A stretch of DNA of 23,852 bases from the NCBI GenBank assembly GCA_009930275.1, contig RZYP01000023.1, forward strand, positions 1-23,852. Reading direction: 5' to 3'. This stretch comes from Negativicutes bacterium. GTDB lineage: Bacteria > Bacillota_C > Negativicutes > Acidaminococcales > Acidaminococcaceae. The notes under the pieces were generated by a model. The model was not told where the DNA came from and searched no databases. It worked only from the letters and a program-made list of their open reading frames with translations. Both the position numbers and the translations under genes were made by a program. Positions 6,888 through 7,639 of the stretch are shown one piece after another (the stretch's first letter is position 1; every line of letters begins with the position of its first letter).

Positions 6888-7639
6888 CCATTGAACTGTC
6901 TTGTCTGTCTGTCTGTCTGTCTGTCTGTCTGTCTGTCTGTCTGTCTGTCTGTCTGTCTGTCTGTCTGTCTGTCTGTCTGTCTGTCTGTGAAATTATGTGC
7001 TTCTAAGTTATCAAAGGACAAGAGTAAGTTTCTATAATATTCATATTGTTTTTTTCTAGCTGTAAGCTCCGCTGTAAGCTCCGCTGTAAGCTCCGTGAAA
7101 TTGTCCAAAATACGGACAATTTCACGCTGTACAGGCAGAGGAGGGAGGGGTACTAATAAATCAGAAATATTACGCAAAGATAAATTGGATTGTGCACTAC
7201 CTGTTTGTTGAGATTCAAACTGTCCTTTTATTTTCGTAGTCTGCAAAACATAAAAAATATATTTCACATTAATATCATTGTCTTCAAGCCTAATTAATGC
7301 GAGTGCTTGATTTGTATTTGCAGGCAAAATATCCTTAGTAACAACAGCAATCCTTCCTAATGCCCCCGCAATCGAAAACAATATATCATTTTCTTTCAAT
7401 ATTGATCGATTTAGTTTTTTATTACATTCATTGGATATATGCTCAAATTTTTCTTTTAAAAATGCGCCATCATTTGTAATAGATTCTATTTTTACAAAAC
7501 TAACACCCTCTTTTTGAAAAGAATAACCCACAGAAGTTGGTGTTGTGCCTTTTGTAATTAACGACGATATCTCACCTAGCGTCTTATATTTCACGCCATT
7601 TGGGCAAAGTTCAGAAATTAAATCATCCAGCTTGCTCAA
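6884..7639 (-). CDS. hsdS: HsdS N-terminal half: TRD1, central conserved region, repeat-encoded tail
   Basis: A 251-residue ORF. TRD1 begins YKTLGEISSLITKGTTPTS and runs to PPLPVQREIVRILDNF. The central conserved helix follows: three ELTA units, then ARKKQYEYYRNLLLSF, as in EcoR124I-family (type IC) HsdS. The last 34 residues are seven TDRQ units, T and RQFNG, encoded mainly by the ACAG tract. The stop overlaps the ATG of the C-terminal half. The start is TTG 7639-7637, overlapping the rhuM stop as TTGA, with GGTGAG five bases upstream. The TRD1 DNA is very AT-rich: 61 G/C in the 240 bases 7201-7320 plus 7381-7500, by hand count. This suggests the domain was exchanged from another source. As sequenced, it would give a truncated, one-TRD HsdS. 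Confidence 0.93.
   Translation of the reverse strand: MSKLDDLISELCPNGVKYKTLGEISSLITKGTTPTSVGYSFQKEGVSFVKIESITNDGAFLKEKFEHISNECNKKLNRSILKENDILFSIAGALGRIAVVTKDILPANTNQALALIRLEDNDINVKYIFYVLQTTKIKGQFESQQTGSAQSNLSLRNISDLLVPLPPLPVQREIVRILDNFTELTAELTAELTARKKQYEYYRNLLLSFDNLEAHNFTDRQTDRQTDRQTDRQTDRQTDRQTDRQTRQFNG
6902..6988 (-). repeat. Tetranucleotide simple-sequence repeat, (ACAG)21.75 on the coding strand, inside hsdS
   Basis: The plus strand reads TGTC repeated without interruption from 6902 to 6988: 87 bp, 21 full units plus three bases. A further TGTCT at 6897-6901 is out of register by one base. On the coding strand the unit is ACAG. Because 4 and 3 share no factor, all three frames give the same cyclic peptide (T-D-R-Q) with no stop, so unit gain or loss shifts the downstream frame without ending translation inside the tract. 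Such tracts mutate by slipped-strand mispairing. It sits between the central conserved helix and TRD2 of HsdS. Confidence 0.97.
7059..7094 (-). repeat. Three perfect 12-bp tandem repeats encoding ELTA (TAEL spacer repeat) in hsdS
   Basis: GCTGTAAGCTCC occurs three times in succession on the plus strand: 7059-7070, 7071-7082 and 7083-7094. On the coding strand they give TELTAELTAELTA within the central conserved helix of HsdS. In the EcoR124I/EcoR124II pair, a change between two and three TAEL copies alters the length of the non-specific spacer in the recognition site. The same role is inferred here from position and sequence. Copy-number change is in frame. Confidence 0.93.

What the first reader, a model, noticed from the sequence alone, without database searches (positions are those of the whole stretch)
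6902..6988. Phase-variable hsdS: 21.75-unit ACAG tract switches between split and fused specificity subunit
Seen directly: an 87-bp perfect tetranucleotide tract lies between the N- and C-terminal halves of hsdS and is stop-free in all frames. At the given length, translation ends at TGA 6886-6884, yielding a 251-aa half. Counting frames by hand, +1 unit (or -2) joins the halves through TDKTVQW into one 429-aa HsdS; -1 unit (or +2) gives a 253-aa half ending at TGA 6876-6874. Long tracts of this type are known to slip during replication. This predicts a three-state switch of methylation specificity, and so a candidate phasevarion controlling many genes.
Basis: partly seen in the sequence, partly recalled or inferred. 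Interest (0 to 1): 0.93.

Follow-up and report, generated by a model that had tools for sequence, protein, structure and literature searches.

The report
Repeat-tract switch in a restriction-specificity gene
The gene that tells a bacterial restriction–modification enzyme which DNA sequence to recognise carries 21.75 copies of the repeat ACAG exactly between its two recognition domains; gaining or losing a copy is predicted to fuse or split the protein and so would change which DNA sites the cell marks and cuts, and comparable repeats sit just after a recognition domain in 21 of 75 related systems examined.

Summary
A perfect 87-nt (ACAG)21.75 tract (6902-6988; coding strand minus) separates the two target-recognition domains (TRDs) of hsdS in an uninterrupted Type I operon, hsdM-rhuM-hsdS-hsdR, whose closest solved relative is EcoR124. 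Frames check out: 251 aa now, 429 aa fused at +1, 253 aa at -1. In 75 related loci chosen by HsdM alone, all 13 tetranucleotide tracts of 16 nt or more lie just after an HsdS half, none elsewhere in 1.2 Mb; AG and poly-G tracts sit there too. Tetranucleotide junctions are fused in 3 of 10, in line with random phase. The three reading states occur in three close relatives: this window, L001, and protein P0001 with nearly the same TRD1 fused through a short TDRQ linker to a different TRD2. The tract encodes a probably disordered linker. NgoAV of gonococcus is the experimentally established precedent, so this is a new variant of a known kind: tetranucleotide, three frames, and a split state whose halves overlap as ATGA. 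Activity of the split forms, slippage in this strain and a phasevarion are untested. Off-frame stops are no nearer to the tract than in tract-free controls.

The parts
6902..6988 (-). (ACAG)21.75 tract; encodes a TDRQ linker in any frame
6884..7639 (-). hsdS N-half: TRD1, central conserved helix, TDRQ tail (251 aa in the present phase); TTG start overlaps the rhuM stop as TTGA
   Evidence: PF01420 E 8.7e-22; model mean pLDDT 81.6 with residues 215-251 under 50; overlap
6354..6887 (-). hsdS C-half: TRD2 and distal conserved helix (177 aa if started at the ATG that overlaps the N-half stop as ATGA)
   Evidence: PF01420 E 1.5e-20; overlap; homologues
7059..7095 (-). 12-bp x 3.1 repeat encoding TAEL, of the kind called LEAT in NgoAV
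   Evidence: comparison with passages of PMC6789123
8646..10214 (-). hsdM (522 aa), N6-adenine methyltransferase
   Evidence: PF02384 and PF12161; best solved relative EcoR124II M, E 4.7e-188
7636..8649 (-). rhuM-like gene (PF13310) between hsdM and hsdS, overlapping hsdM as ATGA
3328..6357 (-). hsdR (1009 aa) with EcoR124_C domain; start overlaps the hsdS C-half stop as ATGA

Best explanation
The ACAG tract sits exactly between the two recognition domains of a Type I (EcoR124-like) specificity subunit and likely works as a slippage switch: gaining or losing a 4-nt unit would move the gene among one fused and two split reading states, and so likely change the DNA sequence that the enzyme methylates and cuts. 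Shown: tract, reading frames, uninterrupted operon genes, tract position, and variation of length and state among relatives. Inferred: slipped-strand mispairing in this strain; in the fused phase a TRD1-TRD2 HsdS giving an asymmetric bipartite target, with the tract as a loose linker; in the present phase an N-half (TRD1 plus central helix) that would dimerise on a palindromic TRD1 target, and possibly also pair with a C-half made by termination-reinitiation at the ATGA overlap; in the third phase an N-half with a less favourable overlap for the C-half. The second, 12-bp TAEL repeat could add variation of spacer length. Regulation of other genes is not shown.
For: Tract and frames. Operon and both halves; closest solved relatives: EcoR124 S and M (7bst) and EcoR124-type HsdR (2w00, 7bst). 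Position: of 80 loci fetched by HsdM, 75 hold an HsdS half; in these all 13 tetranucleotide tracts of 16 nt or more lie in windows just after an HsdS half (13,995 of 1,211,376 bases), as do 5 of 6 dinucleotide tracts of 12 nt or more and 3 of 7 homopolymers of 9 nt or more. Different units (ACAG, AAGC, AG, G) fill the same site. On the HsdM tree the any-repeat label needs 16 changes, at least 7 forced by well-supported branches (quick tree). State: tetranucleotide junctions with both flanks in view are fused in 3 of 10, expectation 1/3. Same lineage: window 21.75 units split (RQFNG stop); L001 12.0 units split (DSSMDDIR stop); P0001 fused through TDRQTDRQTD to another TRD2, its first 160 residues 159 of 160 identical to the window's N-half (of P0001 only the protein was seen). 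Linker: in naturally fused L018 (18 units) the model has a central helix 167-206, residues 210-237 under pLDDT 50 where the tract codes, and TRD2 strands from 241; its best fold matches are HsdS structures, TM-scores by query length 0.38-0.65. Precedents read as passages: NgoAV (PMC9577141, PMC6789123) and the designed half-S of CC398, cut directly before TRD2, active as a dimer on a palindrome (PMC6158711).
Against: No length variation within one strain could be tested: no reads, no second strain, no whole genome held. Off-frame stops follow the tract no sooner than in tract-free controls (median of the longer off frame 8 versus 13 codons, n 14 versus 50, p 0.46; shorter off frame p 0.82; tetranucleotide only, n 7, p 0.10), so there is no sign that the split ends were tuned. 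The C-half ATG has no clear Shine-Dalgarno, and by eye only L001 among the tract loci shares the ATGA overlap clearly. NgoAV's second half gene is reported not to encode an active protein (PMC9577141 passage). L019's hsdS is broken upstream of its tract, so tract-bearing copies can decay. The any-repeat label is somewhat clustered on the tree (23 of 500 shuffles as low), so the loci are not all independent cases. Tract lengths from assemblies may be imprecise.
Confidence: 0.8

Rival explanations
1. A plain ON/OFF switch: only the fused phase is active, and both split phases have no methyltransferase or restriction activity.
For: A common outcome of repeat tracts inside reading frames; NgoAV's hsdS2 is reported inactive alone (PMC9577141 passage).
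Against: Half-S proteins cut at this very point are active as dimers in CC398 (PMC6158711 passages), and the truncated HsdS of NgoAV has its own specificity; the N-half here is a complete, confidently modelled half-HsdS with its helix; in three-TRD relatives (L070, L075, L077, L134) the split phases still encode a two-TRD HsdS.
Confidence: 0.2
2. The tract is a relic: hsdS is a decaying pseudogene or permanently split gene and the repeat no longer switches anything.
For: The window copy is out of frame; L019's hsdS is broken elsewhere.
Against: Both halves, hsdM and hsdR are uninterrupted; the L001 relative keeps 91% HsdM identity; 3 of 10 tetranucleotide junctions are in frame; repeats recur at this site with four different units and scattered on the tree.
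Confidence: 0.07
3. The tract serves mainly as a homology site for swapping TRDs by recombination, with slippage a side effect.
For: L001 shares 95% over 201 bp, part of the tract included, but not the TRD stretches on either side (its N-half is 48% identical to the window's); P0001 keeps TRD1 but has another TRD2 after the linker.
Against: AG and G tracts of 9-28 nt are short for this purpose, yet occupy the same site; the conserved helices next to the TRDs may already offer longer homology (inference). The two roles do not exclude each other.
Confidence: 0.15

Closest known systems
NgoAV (Neisseria gonorrhoeae), phase-variable hsdS1/hsdS2
   Same: Type I operon whose hsdS is split by a slippage tract after the first TRD half; split and fused products; also carries tetra-amino-acid LEAT repeats, the two together setting specificity (passages of PMC9577141 and PMC6789123)
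   Different: poly-G there; here a tetranucleotide of 87 nt encoding a TDRQ linker, a rhuM gene in the operon, and a C-half that overlaps as ATGA; no activity data here
SSR-bearing hsdS genes of the REBASE survey (Atack et al. 2020)
   Same: repeat tracts in hsdS; 7.9% of hsdS genes carry SSRs, as quoted in a passage of PMC7394358
   Different: the survey itself was not held, so whether ACAG tracts at TRD junctions are listed there is unknown to me
SpnD39III and other inverting hsdS loci
   Same: specificity switching of a Type I enzyme (passages of PMC7394358)
   Different: those use recombination between inverted repeats of several hsdS copies; not found here
Designed half-S methyltransferase of CC398
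   Different: engineered and not phase-variable
ACAG tracts before glycosyltransferase and acyltransferase genes in the class of G001
   Same: same unit on the coding strand
   Different: there the tract lies at the 5' end of an ordinary gene, as an ON/OFF switch would

Membership tests
Type I R-M, EcoR124-like (IC) | hsdM, hsdS and hsdR with the family domains | tested here: met
   PF02384/PF12161, PF01420 twice, PF12008 EcoR124_C; best solved relatives EcoR124 M, S, R. The label IC is recalled
Type I R-M, EcoR124-like (IC) | enzyme activity | not testable with these tools
   needs methylome or restriction assay
SSR phase-variable hsdS (NgoAV-like) | slippage tract between TRD1 half and TRD2 half, with fused and split frames | tested here: met
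SSR phase-variable hsdS (NgoAV-like) | variation of tract length and state between relatives | tested here: met
   window, L001, P0001; 3 of 10 tetranucleotide junctions fused
SSR phase-variable hsdS (NgoAV-like) | length variation within one strain | not testable with these tools
   no reads or second strain; no whole genome held
SSR phase-variable hsdS (NgoAV-like) | different methylation specificity of fused and split forms | not testable with these tools
   needs methylomes
Phasevarion | methylation state changes expression of a set of genes | not testable with these tools
   no expression data
Inverting hsdS locus (SpnIII type) | inverted repeats between two or more hsdS genes, often a recombinase | tested here: not met
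   only a weak inverted pair (35 nt, 74% complementary) in 3300-10500; one hsdS, and no recombinase family, among the 15 window proteins scanned; the rest of the genome was not available

The most novel reading that the evidence does not exclude
The TRD junction of EcoR124-like HsdS is a recurrent evolutionary address for slippage repeats: in many lineages ACAG, AAGC, AG or G tracts arise again and again at this one point, so that slippage toggles modular specificity subunits among half-S dimers, translationally coupled split heterodimers and fused forms, and in three-TRD versions switches a spare third recognition domain on and off the end of a working HsdS.
Probability: 0.4. Interest if true: 0.72.

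Novelty: new variant of a known kind. Interest (0 to 1): 0.57.

Why it matters
If true, cells of one clone would differ in which DNA they mark and cut, which would give a population cover against phages and possibly several expression states. The comparative result makes it testable at scale: long-read data of communities that hold such systems should show mixed tract lengths and mixed methylation motifs at these loci. It would also suggest that half-HsdS dimers, which the passages I read describe for one engineered and one natural case, are a wider natural working form.

Tried and rejected
Tuned termination: I expected off-frame stops unusually close to the tract; controls show no difference (14 of the 21 tract loci, without L021, L032, L041, L044, L048, L064 and L076, and without the window, against 50 tract-free junctions). 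Conserved restart for the C-half: by eye the ATGA overlap is clear only in the window and L001; its chance frequency was not computed, so it is offered as a local feature. Inverting locus: rejected for the window. Carriage on a plasmid or virus: no DNA match in plasmids; only distant protein relatives in plasmids (559 records, all under 60% identity) and 10 viral loci at 32-41%; phages were not searched. ACAG as a mark of hsdS: rejected. In the class of G001, 17 of 380 genomes have (ACAG)6. I fetched 20 stretches from these 17 genomes, not every tract in them, as the listing of places was capped. Three stretches (L122, L134, and L135, the L001 stretch again) have it in hsdS; of the other 17, six are followed by glycosyltransferase 2 or acyltransferase 3 by Pfam (L124, L126, L127, L128, L132, L133), four look alike by eye only (L125, L129, L130, L131), one follows an EcoRI-type methyltransferase (L121), and six are unassigned (L116-L120 without a long frame there except a 60-codon one in L116, and L123, cut at a contig end). 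So it looks like a general contingency repeat there. Masking of homopolymers in the control loci: checked, run lengths fall off smoothly. Host organism: not established; the nearest named record (L001) is titled Acholeplasmataceae MAG, a label I did not test. Papers on ACAG or GACA tracts in hsdS: none recognised in the listings (open library, titles and abstract starts only). Passages of PMC11868660 and PMC6241649 were also seen and not used.

Full report
What was checked. The tract is real and exactly as described: a perfect period-4 run of 87 nt at 6902-6988, ACAG on the coding strand. Both flanking ORFs are Methylase_S halves.

The operon. On the minus strand the order is hsdM (8646-10214), rhuM (7636-8649), hsdS N-half (6884-7639), hsdS C-half (6354-6887), hsdR (3328-6357). 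Sequence search of solved structures gives EcoR124 subunits as best match for M and S, and EcoR124-type HsdR for R. All four gene junctions, including that of the two hsdS halves in the present phase, overlap by 4 nt as ATGA, TTGA, ATGA and ATGA. The half-half junction, unlike that before hsdR (AAGGAG), has no clear Shine-Dalgarno in the 20 nt upstream, and I did not compute how often such an overlap arises by chance; I use it as a suggestion that the C-half may be made, no more. No strong inverted repeat was found in 3300-10500, and no second hsdS or recombinase among 15 window proteins scanned.

Where such tracts sit. One scan of named species genomes with HsdM alone gave 80 loci, the best of 586 relatives found; an HsdS half was found in 75. 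The profile that located halves was built from 116 halves of proteins. Windows from -15 to +75 nt around the end of each half make up 13,995 of 1,211,376 bases; they were chosen after seeing the first tracts. They hold 13 of 13 tetranucleotide tracts of 16 nt or more (12 ACAG, 1 AAGC), 5 of 6 dinucleotide tracts of 12 nt or more (all five AG), 3 of 7 homopolymers of 9 nt or more (all three G), and neither of one period-5 and one period-8 tract. So 21 of 75 loci have a junction repeat. In 7 of the 13 tetranucleotide cases both flanking halves are on the contig; in the other 6 (L021, L032, L041, L044, L048, L064) the contig ends in or within 17 nt of the tract, so the following half is inferred. 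All 21 tracts have the purine-rich strand as coding strand, giving hydrophilic or glycine linkers.

History and state. On an HsdM tree of 76 rows (the 75 loci and the window; quick method) the any-repeat label needs 16 changes, at least 7 of them forced by starred branches; it is somewhat clustered (shuffled mean 19.4, 23 of 500 shuffles as low). Near neighbours carry different units (L077 ACAG with L075 AAGC; L018 ACAG with L037 AG, the latter pair supported at 86). 'None' includes L027 and L040, whose halves reach the contig end. One third is what free slippage would give; the sample is small. The closest relatives give the three states directly: window split at RQFNG with 21.75 units, L001 split at DSSMDDIR with 12.0 units, and the metagenomic protein P0001 (297 aa, on a 2142-nt contig; DNA not seen), 159 of its first 160 residues identical to the window's N-half (184 of 217 over the longer stretch with the helix), fused through TDRQTDRQTD to a different TRD2. 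L001 shares 95% over 201 bp that include part of the tract, while the TRD stretches on either side do not align as DNA.

Linker and half. AlphaFold models were made from natural sequences only. L018's fused HsdS (420 residues, mean pLDDT 72.9, pTM 0.60) shows a central helix 167-206, pLDDT under 50 at 210-237 where the tract codes (about 217-240 by arithmetic), and TRD2 strands from 241; a second stretch, 255-285, is also under 50. Its best Foldseek matches are HsdS structures. The window's N-half (mean pLDDT 81.6) is a complete half-HsdS with helix 168-207 and a tail 215-251 under 50, matching HsdS chains first and, lower down, other methyltransferases with such domains. Low confidence is read here as disorder, which is an inference.

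Against. Off-frame stops are no nearer to the tract than to the same point in 50 tract-free junctions (longer off frame: medians 8 and 13 codons, p 0.46; shorter: p 0.82; tetranucleotide only, n 7, p 0.10). L019's hsdS is broken. Slippage within a strain, activity, specificity and regulation are all untested.

Known kinds. In NgoAV a poly-G tract after the first half of hsdS toggles between a truncated HsdS (GCAN8TGC) and a fused one (GCAN7STCA in PMC9577141; PMC6789123 prints the second half otherwise), and LEAT repeats also vary (passages). The window has both kinds of element (tract and TAEL x3). A designed half-S cut directly before TRD2 dimerises on a palindrome (passages of PMC6158711). 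PMC7394358 quotes a survey in which 7.9% of hsdS genes carry SSRs (passage); that survey (Atack 2020) was not held. Within-population length variation of dinucleotide tracts in HsdS genes was reported for Ca. Mycoplasma girerdii (passages of PMC5476646), and PMC9465063 mentions AG tracts in mycoplasma hsdS (passage). The finding is therefore a new variant of a known kind. What seems new here is the recurrence of different units at one precise junction across many loci, and the three-TRD version; I recognised neither in the listings (titles and abstract starts, open library only).

Noticed in passing
L121 (G130:C7), tract 4583-4712 in reverse orientation: A 32.5-unit ACAG tract follows an EcoRI-type adenine methyltransferase reading frame (PF13651, E 3.7e-143): a second kind of methyltransferase with such a tract.
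   Followed up: partly
L124, L126, L127, L128, L132, L133 (by Pfam); L125, L129-L131 (by eye): ACAG tracts of 6-25 units run into glycosyltransferase family 2 or acyltransferase-3 reading frames in one of the three frames; L128 and L130 hold two tract-bearing genes in a row.
   Followed up: partly
window 7059-7095: TAEL-coding 12-bp x 3.1 repeat in the central helix; by a rough pattern, relatives P0001-P0120 show 0-3 such units.
   Followed up: partly
window 149-3150 and L001 6824-9872: The PAS-GGDEF-EAL gene and small acetyltransferase lie after hsdR in the window, but the same region (72% DNA identity) lies before hsdM in L001, so the operon sits on opposite sides of this pair.
   Followed up: no
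L075 12754-12811: An AAGC tract (14.5 units, KQAS linker) stands at the same junction in a near relative of ACAG-bearing L070 and L077.
   Followed up: partly
window 11582-12892: Protein with a Beta-lactamase2 domain (PF13354) and DUF2680; function unknown.
   Followed up: no
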